Below are positions 1,465-16,905 of a stretch of 64,000 bases of DNA, piece after piece. A program made the position numbers and the translations under genes. This stretch comes from Tuwongella immobilis (GTDB lineage Bacteria > Planctomycetota > Planctomycetia > Gemmatales > Gemmataceae). The DNA lies in the NCBI RefSeq assembly GCF_901538355.1, contig NZ_LR593887.1:3200920-3264919 (forward strand), given 5' to 3'. The notes under the pieces are model-generated. The model made no database searches and had not been told where the DNA came from. It saw only the letters and a list, made by a program, of their open reading frames with translations. Position 1 is the stretch's first letter; each line of letters begins with the position of its first letter.

Positions 1465-1928
1465 TTGCTGTCCTCCCGAAGGTGCTCGACGGGCTGATCT
1501 GTTGTGGGCTTCGGCCAATGGCGTTTCTGGTTTTTCTGGAGTTTCTTCCAGACTTCCATCAGGAGTTCCACCGGACCCAATCCCGCGCGTCGAGCAGCGT
1601 CCCAGATCAGCAGTTGGCAGTCGGCAAGTTCCTCGGCGAGCTCGGGTGTGCCGATCGCCTGAACCGCCTCTCGGACCTCCTTTTCCAAATGCAGCAGCGG
1701 ACCTTTGGGGCCGCGATATTCAACGGAGCCGAAGGTTTTCTGCGACCATTCCCACGATGCGTCCAAAAGACAAGCGTGCAAATGACCCCAGATTTCAGAC
1801 GTGATCGACCCTCGGAATTGAGCCACTGACAAGATGGCATTGATGAAGCCAGATGTCTCTTTGGGCATTTCAATCAATCCGTCATTGGACCGAATGAAAT
1901 CCCGTTTGATTCTGATCTGCTCACTCAT
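1461..1928 (-). CDS. DUF550 / MazG-like nucleotide pyrophosphohydrolase
   Basis: A 155-residue protein. The second half carries the all-alpha NTP pyrophosphatase pattern of DUF550 (dATP/dGTP diphosphohydrolase-like): an ExxxEA helix (LEKEVREA) followed by EELADCQLL and a third helix ending in KKLQKNQKRHWPK. In MazG-like enzymes these acidic residues bind Mg2+ and the (d)NTP, which is hydrolysed to (d)NMP and pyrophosphate. The start MSEQIRIK at 1928 overlaps the upstream gene by 8 bases and the stop overlaps the sigma start by 4. DUF550 proteins are common in phages and mobile elements, where they may adjust dNTP pools. A relative (MazZ) works with PurZ in diaminopurine synthesis, but no PurZ is seen here. 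Confidence 0.75.
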   Translation of the reverse strand: MSEQIRIKRDFIRSNDGLIEMPKETSGFINAILSVAQFRGSITSEIWGHLHACLLDASWEWSQKTFGSVEYRGPKGPLLHLEKEVREAVQAIGTPELAEELADCQLLIWDAARRAGLGPVELLMEVWKKLQKNQKRHWPKPTTDQPVEHLREDSK

Positions 1929-2133
1929 TGGTCTCACCGCCCTTGGTTTGAGCATTTTGGGAGAGCCATTCTTGGAGCTCCTTGATTGGGAACACGATGC
2001 ATCGCCCGACTTTGACGTGCGGGATCCGATCGGTTAAGTCCCAGAGCATTCGCTCGCTGATGCCGATTGCCTGGGCGGCCTCCGGTGCCCGGAGCGCGAG
2101 TACCGTTGGGGGTTGCTGCGACTTCGTAAGCAT
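1921..2133 (-). CDS. Excisionase/AlpA-like HTH protein
   Basis: A 70-residue protein with a MerR/excisionase-type winged helix fold: LRAPEAAQAIGISERMLWDL is the helix-turn-helix, followed by the wing VKVGRCIVFPIKELQEWL. Such proteins bind DNA as small accessory factors. In integrative elements they commonly act as recombination directionality factors with a tyrosine integrase, or as activators (AlpA). It is the first gene of the leftward operon and lies directly downstream of the TGGCTAAG repeats at 2191-2246, the likely control region of that operon. With an integrase present at 3950-5101, a directionality role is a reasonable inference, not shown. Confidence 0.72.
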   Translation of the reverse strand: MLTKSQQPPTVLALRAPEAAQAIGISERMLWDLTDRIPHVKVGRCIVFPIKELQEWLSQNAQTKGGETNE

Positions 2134-2252
2134 TCAAATTCTCCTGATTTGTTTGACCGAGAGCACACTACCACGGGGTGATCCATTGACCTTAGCCATG
2201 TCGAATTTTGGCTAAGCTGGCTAAGGTCTAAATCATTCTGGCTAAGCCGAGA
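2134..2252. promoter_or_regulatory. Intergenic repeats, four TGGCTAAG sites
   Basis: This gap contains four exact copies of TGGCTAAG: one inverted at 2191-2198 and three direct at 2209-2216, 2218-2225 and 2239-2246. The last two direct copies are exactly 21 bp apart. The same core with 21-bp period is repeated inside the neighbouring gene (2569-2660). Clustered sites upstream of the leftward operon look like an operator array or iterons. Confidence 0.65.
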
Positions 2253-2864
2253 CTAACCGGTGTTACACCATCGATTCAGATAGTTCTGGCCATCCGCGGT
2301 AATTCGAAGACCTTGGCGGAAGTTGGATTCGATCAATCCCAGTAGTCGAAGTTGTTTCGTGGCTCGAATCCAACTCCCCGACGTGGAGTCAGCGTCGTCC
2401 GAGATCGACATCGCGAGTTCGCCAGACACGATCCAATCACCCGCATCACCAAGCCCCTGGAGAATCTCAAGTGCCAGTTCCGACAAGACTTGGGTACTCG
2501 GCGAGAGTAACGACGTCGGCCTCGGATCGATTGCTGTTCCCGTTGGCCGATCTGGCTCGCGAATGGTTTGGCTGAGCTCGGTATCGTTCTGGCTGAGCTC
2601 GGAATTACTTTGGCTAAGCTCAGGGGCATTCTGGCTGATGTCTGAATTACTTTGGCTGAGCTCTGAGGACCGGTGGCGATGATTCGGTTCTTTTCCGCGC
2701 CGCAAACTCAACATCCAGGTTTGCACTTCAGCAAAGTCCCATCGTTCGAGGTCACCAGGGAGGATCGTTGGCGAAGGGAATGTGCCCGATTGCACCCATT
2801 CTCGGATCAGTCGAGTCGGCACACAGATTCGCTTGGAAATCTCTCGGATCGTAAGCAGTCGCAT
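2253..2864 (-). CDS. HTH protein with five ELSQ heptads and C-terminal winged helix
   Basis: A 203-residue protein, counted from ATG 2864; an in-frame ATG at 2906 preceded by GGGGG is an alternative start. Residues 1-60 form an excisionase/MerR-like HTH (LTIREISKRICVPTRLIREW, then WDFAEVQTWM). The centre has five heptads of the type E-L-S-Q-x-x-x, encoded by five 21-bp DNA repeats. The C-terminal 80 residues look like a winged helix (WIRATKQLRLLGLIES, then RITADG). Two DNA-binding modules joined by a repeat linker suggest a replication initiator or transcription regulator of the element. The presence of the repeated core both in the gene and beside it recalls initiators such as lambda O that carry their binding sites in their own gene. 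No family is confidently recognised. Confidence 0.65.
   Translation of the reverse strand: MRLLTIREISKRICVPTRLIREWVQSGTFPSPTILPGDLERWDFAEVQTWMLSLRRGKEPNHRHRSSELSQSNSDISQNAPELSQSNSELSQNDTELSQTIREPDRPTGTAIDPRPTSLLSPSTQVLSELALEILQGLGDAGDWIVSGELAMSISDDADSTSGSWIRATKQLRLLGLIESNFRQGLRITADGQNYLNRWCNTG
2569..2660. repeat. Five 21-bp repeats with TGGCTRA core inside a gene
   Basis: Core copies start at 2569, 2590, 2611, 2632 and 2653, exactly 21 bp (two helical turns, seven codons) apart. Four read TGGCTGAG or TGGCTAAG and the fourth reads TGGCTGAT. They encode the ELSQ heptads of the minus-strand gene, and the same core occurs four times in the adjacent intergenic region. Confidence 0.85.
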
Positions 2865-3193
2865 GGTGTTGGTCCCTGAGAGCAAAAGGACTTGTTCCTG
2901 TCTCATTCCGCACCCCCACCTCGAAGCGATTGTGATCGCCATCATCGAGGGATCTGCGTCGCAGAAGCAGCGCGCGTGAGCGTGACCCAAATCCACTGAC
3001 CCGAATTCACTTTTGGTAAAACTTTGGATTCCAAGAAGAATTTCTCCAAAGAAAGTGACCTGCTAGACGAAATGATATTACGCTGTGGCATCATCCGCGT
3101 CAATACGCTGCGGTAGGGTTGCGGCAATTTTATTTGAAAAAGATGACGCTACGGAATATGATCGTGGAGAATCATCTGAAGAAGGGGTTGCCG
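2865..3193. promoter_or_regulatory. Divergent control region with possible repressor operators
   Basis: This gap separates the leftward HTH gene from the rightward repressor and should carry both promoters. It holds the imperfect palindrome CTTTGGATTCCAAG (3022-3035). This is flanked by the outward-facing half sites TCACTTTTGG (from 3007) and CCAAAGAAAGTGA (to 3058), a layout that would suit a dimeric repressor. Promoter hexamers are not clear enough to assign. Confidence 0.35.
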
Positions 3194-3805
3194 ATGGATA
3201 CTGTCAGTTTTGGTGATGCGCTCCGTGAAGCACGATCGCGGAAAAACATGACCCAGAATCAACTTGCTGAAATCCTCGGTTTGACCCAAGGAGGACTTGC
3301 TCACATTGAGTCTGGAAGACGAGGTGTGGAGCGAGATCCCACCATTGTGATGCGAATGGAGGCCGCCCTCGGGTTGCCACCTGGAACGCTCCTTCGATTT
3401 CTGCCCGAGGAACATCCAATCCGTCAAGTTGCTGAAATCGAGATTCCAGTGATTGGCTCCGTCGGCGCCGGTCCCGCATGCGCTGATCCTTCTGACCCCG
3501 AGGATCGTCTCAGCGTCGGAGAAGCATTCGCGGGTTGTGTTGCCTATCAGGTACGTGGGGATTCAATGCTCAGTGAGCAGATCCGGAGCGGCGACTACAT
3601 TATCGTTCGCTCAGACCCGTCCCCGCGACCTGGGGAAATCGTTGTCGCTTGGCTCGCAGATCTTGATGGATGTGTTTGCAAGAAATTAACACGATCAAAT
3701 AGATTGGTGAGCGACAACGATTGGAGCCATAAGTTGACCGAGTCTGACCGGATTTACGGAGCGATGGTCGCAGTGGTTCGGTTGGCGAGACCACATCACC
3801 ATTAA
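3194..3805 (+). CDS. CI/LexA-type self-cleaving repressor (XRE HTH + S24 peptidase)
   Basis: A 203-residue protein. Residues about 5-60 form an XRE-type HTH (MTQNQLAEILGLTQGGLAHI). The C-terminal part is an S24 autopeptidase: the nucleophile Ser lies in VRGDSM, the general-base Lys in CVCKKL, and a probable Ala-Gly cleavage site in SVGAGPA. In this family RecA-stimulated self-cleavage after DNA damage inactivates the repressor and derepresses the prophage or element. The start at ATG 3194 follows AAGGGG by about 6 bases; the frame is open further upstream to a TTG at 3119. It sits between the integrase and the divergent HTH gene, the usual place for the master repressor. Confidence 0.88.
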   Translation: MDTVSFGDALREARSRKNMTQNQLAEILGLTQGGLAHIESGRRGVERDPTIVMRMEAALGLPPGTLLRFLPEEHPIRQVAEIEIPVIGSVGAGPACADPSDPEDRLSVGEAFAGCVAYQVRGDSMLSEQIRSGDYIIVRSDPSPRPGEIVVAWLADLDGCVCKKLTRSNRLVSDNDWSHKLTESDRIYGAMVAVVRLARPHHH

Positions 3806-3835: not shown

Positions 3836-3913
3836 GTACCCACTCCGTTTCCGTTTCGATCAGCCGGTTCAAACGGAAACGGAGTGGGTACCGTAAGCCG
3901 GTTACCCACTCCG
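3836..3913. repeat. Perfect 21-bp inverted repeat plus a third partial copy
   Basis: The arms 3836-3856 and 3871-3891 are exact reverse complements (GTACCCACTCCGTTTCCGTTT on the left would exceed the allowed length in full context; its key core is ACCCACTCCG) separated by 14 bases. A further direct copy of TACCCACTCCG lies at about 3903-3913. The repeat lies between the repressor stop and the integrase start. It lacks a T-tract, so it may be a binding site for integrase arm-type contacts or for the repressor rather than a terminator. Confidence 0.7.
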
Positions 3914-3949: not shown

Positions 3950-5101
3950 ATGGCAAGTATGATCTCAGATGCGAATGGAAGACGACGAATCGAATTCAAA
4001 GGACCGGATCTGAGACGAAGAACCGTTCGGCTCGGGAAGATGTCCAAGAAAGATGCTGATTCGATCTGTCGACAAATCGAACTCCTCCTCAACTCAGTCA
4101 CATCCTCAATTCCAATCCCTCGAGAAACGATCGCTTGGCTGGAAGATATCGGGCCAGAGCTGCGGCAGCGCCTCGCTGCGACGGGGCTCATTCCGACTCA
4201 GCGGTTGGAGACCTTGAAGGGACTGCTGGATGAGTTCGTTCTCAATCGAGAGGATGTGAAACCCGCGACCTTGGAGGTCTGGCAGCAACCCGCCCGCAAC
4301 TTGGTGGAATACTTTGGCGCAGATCGGAGCCTTCGATCCATCTCGCCAGGCGATGCGGAAAAGTTCGCCCGGTGGCTCGGGACTCAAAAGCTCGCACCAT
4401 CGACGGTGGCGAAACGGATAGCATTCGCTCGAACGTTTTTTCACACCGCGCGCAAAAATCGCCTCATCGAAGAAAATCCCTTCGCTGAGGTGAAAGGGCC
4501 GGTGGCCGATGTTCGAGGGCGACAATCCTTTGTCACTCGAGAGATGATGAACCAATTGCTCCGCCATGCAAATCCCGAATGGCGGATAATTCTTACACTC
4601 GCACGATACGGTGGGCTTCGCTGTCCAAGTGAGGTGCTGTCACTCCGATGGGAGGACATTGATTGGGATCGAGGACGAATGGTGGTCCAGGCTCCCAAAA
4701 CGGAACGCTATGCCGGCAAGGCAACTCGTGAGATTCCATTATTTCCAGAATTGAATGATTATCTTCAGGAGGCAAGGGGCCGAGCCGAGGCAGGGCAGAT
4801 CTATGTTGTTGGTGGGAACTTTCGAGAACGGGCCAATCGGCCAACTGGGTGGAAGAACTGTAACATTCGCACTAGCTTCGGGAAGCTGATCAAGCGAGCT
4901 GGATTGGAGCAGTGGCCGCGCATGTTCCACAATCTCCGATCAAGCCGTGAAACGGAACTGCTCGAGGATTTCCCGGTTCATGTGGTAGCAGCTTGGATGG
5001 GGCATGCGGTGCAGGTGAGTCTGAAGCATTATGCTCAGATTACCGATGACCACTTCTTGCGAGCAGTGGAAAAGCCTGACGTAAAAAGCGACGTAAAGTG
5101 A
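3950..5101 (+). CDS. Tyrosine-type site-specific integrase
   Basis: A 383-residue protein. The start at ATG 3950 was chosen because GGAG lies 8 bases upstream; the open frame to 3806 runs through the inverted repeat. The N-terminal half holds the SAM-like core-binding domain (LKGLLDEFVLNREDVKPATLE). The catalytic domain shows the Arg in GGLRCPSEVLSLRWEDI, a Lys near APKTERYAGK, the box II HNLRSSR, the second His in AAWMGHA and the nucleophile Tyr in LKHYAQ. All catalytic residues are present. It should catalyse integration and excision of the element. The gene ends 130 bases from the 3' end of tRNA-Ser, the classic integrase-att arrangement. Confidence 0.92.
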   Translation: MASMISDANGRRRIEFKGPDLRRRTVRLGKMSKKDADSICRQIELLLNSVTSSIPIPRETIAWLEDIGPELRQRLAATGLIPTQRLETLKGLLDEFVLNREDVKPATLEVWQQPARNLVEYFGADRSLRSISPGDAEKFARWLGTQKLAPSTVAKRIAFARTFFHTARKNRLIEENPFAEVKGPVADVRGRQSFVTREMMNQLLRHANPEWRIILTLARYGGLRCPSEVLSLRWEDIDWDRGRMVVQAPKTERYAGKATREIPLFPELNDYLQEARGRAEAGQIYVVGGNFRERANRPTGWKNCNIRTSFGKLIKRAGLEQWPRMFHNLRSSRETELLEDFPVHVVAAWMGHAVQVSLKHYAQITDDHFLRAVEKPDVKSDVK

Positions 5102-5118: not shown

Positions 5119-5231
5119 TACGGAACTGCAAGCAACTGAATCGATTTCGATAGACTTGTCGTAAACCCATCTCAAATCGGCATTTAGATGCCGTCATGCA
5201 CTCAAGTGCAATCTGATGCAAGTAAGGCAAA
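5119..5231. other. Putative attachment-site region
   Basis: No gene is seen. The stretch between the integrase and the tRNA contains two short palindromes, GGCAT-ttag-ATGCC and GCACT-ca-AGTGC, close to the tRNA 3' end. The crossover site is expected within or at the 3' end of the tRNA-Ser gene; the partner att copy would lie outside the window on the left. Confidence 0.4.
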
Positions 5232-5318
5232 CGGAGGGACAGGGATTCGAACCCTGGAATACCTTACGGTATCTCCGGTTTTCAAGACCGGTGCATTCAA
5301 CCGCTCTGCCATCCCTCC
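5232..5318 (-). tRNA. tRNA-Ser (UGA anticodon)
   Basis: Read on the minus strand, the gene folds into a class II tRNA. The 7-bp acceptor GGAGGGA pairs with TCCCTCC, with discriminator G at 5232. The anticodon stem CCGGT/ACCGG encloses the loop CTTGAAA with anticodon TGA (5282-5284). A long variable arm (GATACCGTAAGGTATT) and the T loop GGTTCGAATCC follow. CCA is not encoded. It decodes UCA/UCG-type serine codons. Confidence 0.95.
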
Positions 5319-5329
5319 GTATCGGTGGG

Positions 5330-14277: not shown

Positions 14278-15147
14278 ATGATGAAATGGGTTTATGGATT
14301 GGTGATCATGCTTTCCACAAGTTCGGTTGTGTGGGCGGAAGTACCGAGTAAGCTGAAAGTTGTGCAACACCAGAAATCAATTCCATATCGAAGTGATGAT
14401 GCGGCTGATCGGGAAAAACATTGTCTCGACGTGTTCTACCCGAAGGACCAGAAAAACGTACCCGTTCTCTTTTTTGTTCATGGCGGAGCATGGCGTTCCG
14501 GAAACAAAGAGATGTACGCAAAAATCGGCGAAGTTTTTGCAGCTCGAGGCCTTGTCACCGTTATTCCGAATTATCGACTCTCGCCAAAAGTTAAACATCC
14601 CGGACATATTGAAGATGTGTGCGATGCGTTGAAGTGGACCATCGAAAACATCGAAAAATATGGCGGGAATCGAAAACAGATATTTGTGAGTGGACACTCC
14701 GCAGGGGGCCACCTCGTCGCATTGTTAGCAACTAACCCAACGTATCTCCAAGCAAAAAAACTAACGGTGGAAGCGATTCGTGGTGTGATTCCCATTTCAG
14801 GAGTGTACAGTATTTTACCGATTGGATTGTTCACAACTGTTTTTGGGAGTGACTCACAACTCATGCGTGATGTTTCTCCATTGGAGCAAGTCCGGGCGGG
14901 ACTTCCGCCATTTCTTATTTTGTATGGGGATGCTGATTTCCCAACCTGCGATCTCGTGTCGCAAGCGTTCCAGAAGCGACTCCTTGAGAAAAAAGTTCAA
15001 GCGGAATGCTGTGAGATCGCCAAGCGTGATCATATTGAAATCATCCGCAATGCCATGCTGGGCGATGACCCGATTGTCACGAAAATACTCAGTTTCATTC
15101 GAGAGAAAGGGGAACCCCCCTTGAAAAAAAATCTCTCAAGTCAGTGA
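14278..15147 (+). CDS. Exported alpha/beta-hydrolase (carboxylesterase/lipase)
   Basis: A 289-residue protein with a signal peptide (MMKWVYGLVIMLSTSSVVWA). The esterase family signatures are in order: the oxyanion HGGAW (VLFFVHGGAWRSG), the nucleophile GHSAGG, an Asp in LYGDADFPT and the His in KRDHIEI. It resembles the BD-FAE/COG0657 group (feruloyl/acetyl esterases) and should hydrolyse an ester outside the cytoplasm; the substrate is unknown. GGAGGG precedes the start by 8 bases. It is divergent from pabB and its end overlaps the next minus-strand gene by 7 bases. Confidence 0.85.
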   Translation: MMKWVYGLVIMLSTSSVVWAEVPSKLKVVQHQKSIPYRSDDAADREKHCLDVFYPKDQKNVPVLFFVHGGAWRSGNKEMYAKIGEVFAARGLVTVIPNYRLSPKVKHPGHIEDVCDALKWTIENIEKYGGNRKQIFVSGHSAGGHLVALLATNPTYLQAKKLTVEAIRGVIPISGVYSILPIGLFTTVFGSDSQLMRDVSPLEQVRAGLPPFLILYGDADFPTCDLVSQAFQKRLLEKKVQAECCEIAKRDHIEIIRNAMLGDDPIVTKILSFIREKGEPPLKKNLSSQ

Positions 15148-15488
15148 GAGATATCTCCATGGCTCGAGTTGGGATTTGAATCGGCAATGCCAGAGCCGGT
15201 AGCTGCTAAAATACCAGCGATCTGTCTCCATAATTGTTGCAATCGATCGGAAGCATTTCCCCAAATGATCACTCGGTCGTGGTTTCCAATCCGACGAATC
15301 GTGAGCATCCCATCAGCGAGCGAGAGCCGGACTTCCCTCCATCCTTCGGGGGGAAGTTCATCTGGAAAAGCCGGAAGTTGATCGATCATTCGAATCTGAT
15401 ACTCGATTAGCGAAGCCTTCAATTCAACTTGAATCACTTCCCAATTTGGTGGATTCAAGGGATATCGAACTGTGATTTCCATGCCCAT
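15141..15488 (-). CDS. Hypothetical protein, 115 residues
   Basis: A small protein starting MGMEITVRYP at 15488, with AGGAT about 9 bases upstream; ATG 15482 also fits. It reads as an alpha/beta domain with WREVRLSLADGMLTIRR and WRQIAGILAATG. I recognise no family. It lies 10 bases downstream of the DUF1501 gene in the same direction, so it is probably the last gene of that operon, and it converges with the esterase with a 7-base overlap. Confidence 0.65.
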   Translation of the reverse strand: MGMEITVRYPLNPPNWEVIQVELKASLIEYQIRMIDQLPAFPDELPPEGWREVRLSLADGMLTIRRIGNHDRVIIWGNASDRLQQLWRQIAGILAATGSGIADSNPNSSHGDISH

Positions 15489-15498
15489 GGCGTCGATC

Positions 15499-16905
15499 CT
15501 AACTCCGAATAATGGGATGGACTACTTCGCCAAAAACATCGGTGAGTCGCATATCTCGGCCGCCGAATCGATAGGTTGTTTTTGTGTGATCGAGTCCGAG
15601 TAGATGTAACATCGTAGCATGGAGATCATGAATTTCTACTTTATTCGCAATCGCATGATATCCAAACTCGTCGGTTTCACCGTGAATGGTGCCACCTTGA
15701 ATACCACCTCCGGCCATCCAGATTGAGAAGCCAAATGGATTATGGTCTCGGCCATCACTACCTTGTGCCATCGGTGTTCTACCGAATTCCCCGGCCCAAA
15801 CGACAAGCGTTGAATCGAGTAATCCGCGAGATTTAAGGTCTTTTAAGAGACCAGCGATCGGTTTATCGACAGCTGCTGCATTGGCCTCATGACCAGCTTT
15901 GAGTTGATTATGTTGATCCCAACGATCGAAACCGAGGTTTGGACACAATAATTCGATGAATCGCACCCCACGTTCGACAAGTCGCCGAGCAATGAGACAT
16001 TGTCTTCCGAAGAGGGAGGTGCGGGACTCATCGAGACCATACAGCTCTTGAGTTTTTTGTGATTCGCTCTTGATATCCATGAGTTCCGGCACAGCCGTTT
16101 GCATCCGGAAGGCTAGCTCATAGTTTTGGACAGCAGATTCGAGTGGATCTGGATTTCCCAGCTGCGATAAAATGGATTGATCTAGCCGTCGTAATAGTTT
16201 GCGTTTTTGTTCGGATGCGGCAGCCGATTGATTTGCTGGTCGAAGGTCGGCAACCGGTAAAGGACCATTTTTAAACAGTGATCCTTGGTAGGAGGCAGGG
16301 AGGAAACCATTGTTAAAACAATCCATCCCGCCGGGAGGGATCATTCCGCTCCCGATCACGATAAACCCGGGGAAGTTCTTGCTCTCGCTTCCTAAACCAT
16401 AAGTCGTCCAGGCTCCCATACTTGGACGACCTTGTTGACCATGTCCAGTATGGATGAAATAATTTGCGTTTGTGTGTTCTGAGAAGTTGGAAACCATCGA
16501 CCGGATAACAGCGAGATCGTCCGCGCAGGTTGCGATATTTGGGAATAAATCGCTGATCGGAATCCCTGACTCGCCGTATTTCCGGAACTTCCATGGAGAA
16601 CCATAAATTTTCCCAATGTTGTTGAATTGGGTCGGTTCAATTTTCCCGGTAAATGCTTTCCCGTGATCCCGAGTTAAACGCGGTTTTGGATCAAAGGTAT
16701 CAACCTGACTTGGGCCACCATCCATAAATAGAAAGATGACCGATTTTGCTTTTGCAGGAAAATGCGTCGGTTTCACGCTCAATGGATCGCGATCTGCAGC
16801 GACTACAGATTGATCATCCGCAAGCAATGCGGTCAATGCAAGCAGCCCGAACCCATTTGCGGAACGGGTGAGAAACTGTCGACGATTGAATTGTGATGGA
16901 TTCAT
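15499..16905 (-). CDS. DUF1501 (sulfatase-fold) exported protein
   Basis: A 468-residue protein starting MNPSQFNRRQFLTRSANG, a twin-arginine (Tat) signal. FLFMDGGPSQVDTFDPKP and the later WAGEFGRTPMAQG and GRDHNP motifs are typical of DUF1501, a planctomycete-expanded family with an alkaline phosphatase/sulfatase fold. The export route through Tat suggests folding with a cofactor in the cytoplasm. Such genes sit beside PSCyt1/DUF1549/DUF1553 genes, as here (20 bases apart), and the pair is thought to act together on extracellular substrates, but no activity is established. The start at 16905 follows TTGGAG. Confidence 0.92.
   Translation of the reverse strand: MNPSQFNRRQFLTRSANGFGLLALTALLADDQSVVAADRDPLSVKPTHFPAKAKSVIFLFMDGGPSQVDTFDPKPRLTRDHGKAFTGKIEPTQFNNIGKIYGSPWKFRKYGESGIPISDLFPNIATCADDLAVIRSMVSNFSEHTNANYFIHTGHGQQGRPSMGAWTTYGLGSESKNFPGFIVIGSGMIPPGGMDCFNNGFLPASYQGSLFKNGPLPVADLRPANQSAAASEQKRKLLRRLDQSILSQLGNPDPLESAVQNYELAFRMQTAVPELMDIKSESQKTQELYGLDESRTSLFGRQCLIARRLVERGVRFIELLCPNLGFDRWDQHNQLKAGHEANAAAVDKPIAGLLKDLKSRGLLDSTLVVWAGEFGRTPMAQGSDGRDHNPFGFSIWMAGGGIQGGTIHGETDEFGYHAIANKVEIHDLHATMLHLLGLDHTKTTYRFGGRDMRLTDVFGEVVHPIIRS

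What the first reader, a model, noticed from the sequence alone, without database searches (positions are those of the whole stretch)
2191..2660. A 21-bp periodic TGGCTRAG array lies both inside a gene and in its neighbouring intergenic region
Seen in sequence: five cores exactly 21 bp apart inside the 2253-2864 gene (2569, 2590, 2611, 2632, 2653), plus four in the 2134-2252 gap, two of those also 21 bp apart. Two helical turns per repeat places all sites on one DNA face. The repeats encode ELSQ heptads, so one sequence is doing protein and DNA work. Inference: this is an iteron origin or operator array recognised by the encoded double-HTH protein, analogous to lambda O whose gene contains its own origin.
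Basis: partly seen in the sequence, partly recalled or inferred. Interest (0 to 1): 0.75.

Follow-up and report, generated by a model that had tools for sequence, protein, structure and literature searches.

The report
Prophage regulator gene carrying binding-site arrays
A prophage gene for a two-part DNA-binding protein carries evenly spaced short repeats in the stretch coding its floppy linker and again just after the gene, and two of its four relatives in the same bacterium do the same with their own different repeats, so these look like DNA docking sites rather than a protein pattern.

Summary
The repeats are real. Four exact TGGCTRAG cores and one degenerate core (2632, TGGCTGAT) lie 21 bp apart in the linker-coding part of gene 2253-2864(-). 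Four exact TGGCTAAG sites, one inverted, lie in the 119-bp gap before the next gene. In this window alone, heptad duplication would explain the coding part. The decisive evidence comes from the same genome. It holds five integrative elements with this integrase, and all five carry a homologous gene (N-terminal excisionase-like wHTH, disordered linker, C-terminal wHTH). None of the relatives has ELSQ heptads or TGGCTRAG. Instead each has its own repeats: GGGACA half-sites (7 in the linker against 0.6 expected under synonymous recoding, in all three reading frames, plus two palindromes in the gap); GGACAGG in linker and gap; or 11-bp GGGCAA arrays downstream. Sites group as the C-terminal domains do. 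This supports a DNA-level, element-specific binding-site array, probably read by the encoded protein. A replication origin is disfavoured: the relatives carry a separate array inside another, initiator-type gene (a family match in two of four), and the window array has no AT-rich element or GC-skew switch. I favour an operator/control array for the early operon and its Xis-like gene.

The parts
2253..2864 (-). Gene for a two-domain DNA-binding protein (203 aa): N-terminal excisionase/MerR-type wHTH (residues 1-55, nt 2864-2700), disordered linker (58-123, nt 2693-2496), C-terminal MarR-like wHTH (about 124-201)
   Evidence: ORF; PHROG 66 'excisionase and transcriptional regulator' 1.3e-8; AlphaFold model pLDDT ~90 for both domains, <50 for 58-113; Foldseek/VIA-align
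2653..2660 (+). Linker site 1, TGGCTGAG (codes LSQ on the minus strand)
2632..2639 (+). Linker site 2, degenerate TGGCTGAT (codes ISQ)
   Evidence: sequence
2611..2618 (+). Linker site 3, TGGCTAAG
2590..2597 (+). Linker site 4, TGGCTGAG
2569..2576 (+). Linker site 5, TGGCTGAG
   Evidence: 21-bp array 2567-2663
2239..2246 (+). Gap site, TGGCTAAG, 21 bp from the one at 2218
2218..2225 (+). Gap site, TGGCTAAG; right arm (2218-2228) of the 11-bp inverted repeat
2209..2216 (+). Gap site, TGGCTAAG, 9 bp from the one at 2218
2191..2198 (-). Gap site, inverted TGGCTAAG; left arm (2188-2198) of the perfect 11-bp inverted repeat
2134..2252 (.). Intercistronic gap between the two-domain gene and the Xis-like gene
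   Evidence: ORFs; corresponding gaps in L011 (129 bp) and L012 (120 bp)
1921..2133 (-). Downstream Xis-like HTH_17 gene (70 aa); counterpart present after the gap in L011 and L012
   Evidence: Pfam HTH_17 1e-7
3075..3103 (-). Promoter-like site for the operon (no TGGCTRAG sites here)
   Evidence: consensus match only; no AGCCA between 2865 and 3190
3194..3805 (+). Divergent CI-like repressor (HTH + peptidase S24)
   Evidence: Pfam/PHROGs
3953..5101 (+). Tyrosine integrase next to tRNA-Ser (5231-5319)
   Evidence: five copies in the genome, at the five element loci

Best explanation
The repeats are an element-specific array of DNA recognition sites belonging to a temperate-phage early regulator. 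The sites lie in DNA that codes the disordered linker of that regulator, where the protein tolerates almost any sequence, and again in the gap before the Xis-like gene. Most likely the encoded protein binds them through its C-terminal wHTH (inferred), with the N-terminal excisionase/BldC-like wHTH helping it to assemble along phased repeats (inferred). Binding across about 470 bp would form a nucleoprotein complex that controls transcription of its own gene and passage into the Xis-like gene (inferred). Supported by computation here: DNA-level rather than protein-level repetition in two relatives (L011, L012); L011's palindrome found nowhere else in the genome; conserved placement; site type that follows the C-terminal domain. 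Not shown: binding, the identity of the binder, and the regulatory outcome.
For: All five elements with this integrase carry the two-domain gene. None of the four relatives has ELSQ or TGGCTRAG arrays, yet each carries its own repeats in or just after the gene. L011: GGGACA x7 in the linker against 0.61 expected under synonymous recoding (p<2e-4), in all three reading frames, so the peptide is not what is repeated; the palindrome TGTCCCGGGACA occurs three times in 6.69 Mb, once in this linker and twice in this gap. L012: GGACAGG x3 in the linker against 0.20, with the palindrome GCCTGTCCCGGACAGGC in the gap. Linker, but not N- or C-domain DNA, shares excess 8-mers with the gap in window, L011 and L012. 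Spacing in register: 21 bp (window), 21-23 bp for most neighbouring half-sites (L011), 11 bp (L009/L010). Between L011 and L012 the N-domain is 55/58 identical and the C-domain 45/79, while the gap palindromes change on both arms. Site types group as the C-domains do: L009/L010 55% identical with GGGCAA, L011/L012 58% with GGGACA, window about 40% to all with CTTAGCCA. The linker is predicted disordered between two folded wHTH domains.
Against: No binding data. Only five elements, in one genome. In L009 and L010 the linker has no excess of sites; their arrays are 160-280 bp downstream of the gene. The window's coding array by itself fits protein-level ELSQ conservation or duplication, since the Leu and Gln wobbles vary. 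No sites lie in the promoter region where an ordinary autoregulator would bind. Another element protein, such as the Xis-like protein in three of the elements, could be the binder.
Confidence: 0.5

Rival explanations
1. Lambda-O-type replication origin: the array is an iteron origin inside the initiator gene and the two-domain protein is the initiator.
For: Site array in the linker-coding DNA of a DNA-binding protein, phased by whole helical turns; [quoted passage not shown] the window prophage has no other array in its 33 kb.
Against: The sisters carry a second array inside a separate initiator-type gene about 6 kb away, in L071 and L072 a PHROG 2509 replication initiation protein (2e-35 and 2e-36). 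No AT-rich element, DnaA box or skew switch at the window array. The window prophage has its own Prim-Pol/DUF3987 and helicase module. The gene's family is excisionase/AlpA-like.
Confidence: 0.2
2. Ordinary coding tandem duplication of a heptad (ELSQxxx) in an unconstrained linker, with a stray duplicate carried past the stop codon.
For: Coding units look like old tandem copies with a 42-bp higher order; gap copies read on in frame after the TAG stop as SRLSQNDLDLSQLSQNS; the longer 31-nt match of gap to coding units is 68-77%; wobble positions vary between units.
Against: Does not explain the inverted gap copy or the 11-bp inverted repeat; the gap 8-mer is exact in four copies while flanks diverge; L011 and L012 show the same linker+gap arrangement with unrelated sequences, and in L011 the repeated DNA falls in all three frames.
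Confidence: 0.15
3. RNA-level element: the gap forms an intercistronic mRNA hairpin (attenuation, processing or stability) and the linker copies compete with it.
For: Strong hairpin in L011 (z -7.25), an 18-pair bulged stem in the window gap, a 7-bp stem in L012, all soon after the stop codon.
Against: Window and L012 folds are not better than shuffles (z -1.34 and -0.60); linker half-sites are direct and phased by DNA turns, which has no meaning in RNA; palindromes with a 0-1 bp centre are typical of DNA dyads; no terminator-like site found there.
Confidence: 0.1
4. The sites belong to another element protein (the downstream Xis-like protein or the CI-like repressor) rather than to the two-domain protein.
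For: The Xis-like gene follows the gap in window, L011 and L012; HTH_17/BldC-type proteins bind 9-bp direct repeats (PMC5859096) and two gap sites are 9 bp apart.
Against: No Xis-like gene was seen directly after the gap in L009/L010, which still have arrays; the window and L011 sites are absent from the repressor promoter regions.
Confidence: 0.15

Closest known systems
Lambda O protein gene with its internal origin (lambdoid phages)
   Same: Repeated protein-binding sites in the middle of a DNA-binding protein's own gene; repeat number changes protein length (PMC7466680)
   Different: The window gene is next to the CI-like repressor and Xis-like gene and of excisionase family; sites continue past the stop codon into the gap; no AT-rich element; sister elements have a separate initiator-type gene with its own array
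Iteron-plasmid Rep systems
   Same: Two wHTH domains (own knowledge of Rep structures); [quoted passage not shown] an inverted copy nearby, as in Rep operators (own knowledge)
   Different: No origin features found; no Rep-family match; integrated prophage with a recognised replication module elsewhere
HTH_17 excisionases, AlpA and BldC (e.g. RdfS, PMC11963761; BldC, PMC5859096)
   Same: N-terminal domain: PHROG 66, Pfam AlpA for L010, best fold match a transposon excisionase (8c3t), with BldC also near the top; BldC assembles on direct repeats
   Different: These are small single-domain proteins; here a disordered linker and a second, MarR-like wHTH are added, and the sites lie inside the gene
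MarR-type winged-helix domains
   Same: Fold of the C-terminal domain (VIA-align Z 12.3, 78 residues, rmsd 2.8)
   Different: Only the winged-helix part is matched; no sequence-family match above cut-off; a common fold, so function does not follow

Membership tests
Lambda-O-type in-gene replication origin | Repeated sites in linker-coding DNA of a DNA-binding protein | tested here: met
Lambda-O-type in-gene replication origin | Adjacent AT-rich unwinding element | tested here: not met
   The AT-richest 60-bp stretches of the window element lie outside the array (starting -319 and -190 from the ATG)
Lambda-O-type in-gene replication origin | Encoded protein is the element's replication initiator | tested here: inconclusive
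   The gene matches excisionase families, not initiators; sisters have another initiator-type gene with in-gene array; the window prophage shows no other array, so it is not excluded there
Lambda-O-type in-gene replication origin | Protein binds the repeats and the fragment replicates | not testable with these tools
   needs EMSA and replication assay
HTH_17/AlpA excisionase-type regulators | Excisionase-type wHTH domain | tested here: met
   PHROG 66 at 1.3e-8 for the window protein; Pfam AlpA above cut-off for L010 and HTH_17 below cut-off for L011/L012; fold match 8c3t, TMt 0.87. The window protein itself has no Pfam match above cut-off
HTH_17/AlpA excisionase-type regulators | Small single-domain protein acting at attachment sites | tested here: not met
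   Two wHTH domains with a linker; the sites are about 2.5 kb from the tRNA-Ser end, not at it
Coding minisatellite (heptad) without DNA role | Repetition follows the peptide and the reading frame | tested here: inconclusive
   In the window the units are in frame and wobbles vary; in L011 the repeated DNA falls in all three frames
Iteron-plasmid Rep/origin | Rep-family initiator protein | tested here: inconclusive
   No Rep family among Pfam/PHROGs matches; Foldseek list is filled by generic wHTH

The most novel reading that the evidence does not exclude
A family of phage regulators whose own linker-coding DNA is their operator array: the disordered linker is free to take any sequence, so the gene can store and re-tune its binding sites together with the C-terminal reading domain, giving co-resident prophages in one cell private protein-site pairs that do not cross-react.
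Probability: 0.35. Interest if true: 0.65.

Novelty: new variant of a known kind. Interest (0 to 1): 0.52.

Why it matters
Sites inside their own protein's gene are known for lambdoid replication origins; here the same economy appears in an excisionase-like regulator with two wHTH domains. Five related elements in one genome offer natural protein-site pairs of at least three site types for testing how prophages that share a cell keep their controls separate, and how a DNA site can move through reading frames inside a disordered linker. It also shows that a repeat which looks like a protein heptad can be a DNA feature, which only the comparison with relatives reveals.

Tried and rejected
Searched for relatives outside the genome: full protein in viral and genome contigs, the L012 protein, profile in 398 genomes of the class (in the loci examined only the generic N-domain was recovered), C-domain profile in 95 genomes of the family and in viral contigs (only this genome), phage records (one weak N-domain match, the same phage under two accessions). 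So the comparison set is five elements in one genome. The 21-bp pattern in 61 genomes of the family gave only isolated hits elsewhere. Replication-origin signs tested and not found at the array: AT-rich element and DnaA boxes, GC-skew switch. Crude control over 164 ORFs: the L011 gene (2nd) and an antisense ORF at L012 (1st) top the list for 8-mers shared with the downstream 120 bp, but the window gene ranks only about tenth by that measure, so the window's own case rests on the exact octamer and the synonymous test (CTYAGCCA 4 against 0.42, p=5e-5), not on shared 8-mers. That test does not allow for tandem duplication. Fold searches gave no match with E<=0.001; absence of a named family there means little. 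The literature searches turned up no description of this arrangement in an excisionase-like gene, but they were few and the held library misses most subscription journals.

Full report
OBSERVATION. The window lies at 3,200,920-3,264,919 of a 6.69-Mb genome. The gene at 2253-2864 is on the minus strand. Its linker-coding part holds cores at 2569, 2590, 2611, 2632 and 2653, exactly 21 bp apart; the one at 2632 is degenerate (TGGCTGAT). The 119-bp gap downstream holds three direct TGGCTAAG and one inverted copy, part of a perfect 11-bp inverted repeat. Eight of ten TGGCTRAG in the window fall here, with 2.25 expected for the whole window.

SETTING. The region is the integrase end of a prophage: integrase beside tRNA-Ser, a CI-like repressor with peptidase S24, then a divergent operon beginning with this gene, followed by an Xis-like HTH_17 gene and a dATP/dGTP pyrophosphohydrolase. 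The public viral collection holds the same prophage as a 33-kb contig. Further along come a Sak4-like protein, RusA, helicase, a Prim-Pol/DUF3987 primase, terminase and portal. The encoded protein is predicted as an N-terminal wHTH (residues 1-55), a disordered linker (58-123) and a C-terminal wHTH. The N-domain is of the excisionase/AlpA/BldC kind; the C-domain has a MarR-like winged-helix fold without a sequence family.

IN THE WINDOW ALONE the case is ambiguous. The coding units read ELSQSNS, DISQNAP, ELSQSNS, ELSQNDT, ELSQTIR. Six of seven wobble positions vary between units; only the serine codon AGC is constant (sequence). CTYAGCCA is commoner than synonymous recoding predicts (4 against 0.42, p=5e-5), but tandem duplication would also give that. 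The gap copies even read on in frame after the TAG stop as SRLSQNDLDLSQLSQNS. Against mere duplication: the octamer is exact in four gap copies while the flanks differ, and one copy is inverted.

THE RELATIVES. The genome holds five integrases of this kind and five copies of the two-domain gene, at the same five loci. No other genome searched has the C-terminal domain. The linkers share no peptide repeat: proline- and alanine-rich in the four relatives, ELSQ only in the window. Yet each element has its own repeats at this gene. L011 has seven GGGACA half-sites in the linker, many 21-22 bp apart, against 0.61 expected, in all three reading frames (GTTV, RDNQ, GGQA, GTSA), and two palindromes 23 bp apart right after the stop codon. 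The palindrome TGTCCCGGGACA exists only three times in the genome, all here. L012 has GGACAGG three times in the linker (0.20 expected) and the palindrome GCCTGTCCCGGACAGGC in the gap. In window, L011 and L012 the linker, but not the N- or C-domain DNA, shares excess 8-mers with the gap; p<5e-4 for L011 and L012 under both nulls, 0.001 (codon permutation) and 0.0175 (synonymous recoding) for the window. L009 and L010 differ: no linker excess, but 11-bp GGGCAA arrays 160-280 bp downstream.

WHO READS THE SITES. Between L011 and L012 the N-domain is 55/58 identical but the C-domain only 45/79, and their gap palindromes differ by changes made on both arms (TTGTCC..GGACAA against CCTGTCC..GGACAGG). 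Across all five, site type groups as the C-domains do. It is an inference: other parts of the elements also differ.

WHAT IT DOES. The lambda-O analogy is good for anatomy: lambdoid iterons lie mid-gene, and adding two lengthens O by 13 residues (PMC7466680). But all four sisters have another array in another gene about 6 kb away: TGCGGACA repeats in L071/L072 inside a replication initiation protein (PHROG 2509, 2e-35 and 2e-36), and 12-bp ACCTGTTAAGGT repeats in L073/L074 inside an ORF with no family match above cut-off. If those are the origins, the two-domain gene's array has another role in those elements, and by homology in the window. The window array also lacks an AT-rich element, DnaA boxes and a skew switch. 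The window prophage itself has no second array, so an origin there is not excluded. An RNA hairpin is possible for L011 (z -7.25) but not better than chance for the window or L012. I therefore favour an operator/control array that the protein uses on its own gene and on passage into the Xis-like gene, at about 0.5 overall; that the array is a DNA-level feature, about 0.8; that the encoded protein is the binder, about 0.6.

LIMITS. Five elements, one genome, no binding data. The linker placement holds in three of five. The motifs tested for L011 and L012 were chosen after seeing the sequences, so their p-values are optimistic; the shared-8-mer test does not depend on a chosen motif. The crude ORF control does not single out the window gene. 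The sisters' second genes were identified by family search and position only.

Noticed in passing
L071 15383-15555, L072 15610-15785 (inside ORFs 14990-16078 and 15220-16317): TGCGGACA repeats (11/33-bp period) inside the gene of a PHROG 2509 replication initiation protein: probable in-gene origins of the two sister elements.
   Followed up: partly
L073 15473-15569, L074 15004-15100: Eight 12-bp ACCTGTTAAGGT units (coding VPVK/VPVE-like repeats in L073) inside an ORF with no family match above cut-off; probable initiator gene with in-gene origin.
   Followed up: partly
window 2198-2252: After the TAG stop of the two-domain gene the frame stays open and codes three more LSQ motifs (SRLSQNDLDLSQLSQNS).
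   Followed up: partly
L009 3651-3653: An in-frame TAG splits the sister gene between its N-domain and linker/C-domain; could be a broken copy or two separate genes.
   Followed up: no
window 3836-3912: Between the CI-like gene and the integrase: a long inverted repeat ACCCACTCCGTTTCCGTTT/AAACGGAAACGGAGTGGGT plus a third partial copy TTACCCACTCCGTGG; possible terminator or protein-binding sites.
   Followed up: no
L011 3488-3661 and L012 3333-3506: The N-domain DNA is 94% identical between the two elements while the C-domain DNA is 58% identical without gaps, which suggests modular exchange at the linker.
   Followed up: partly
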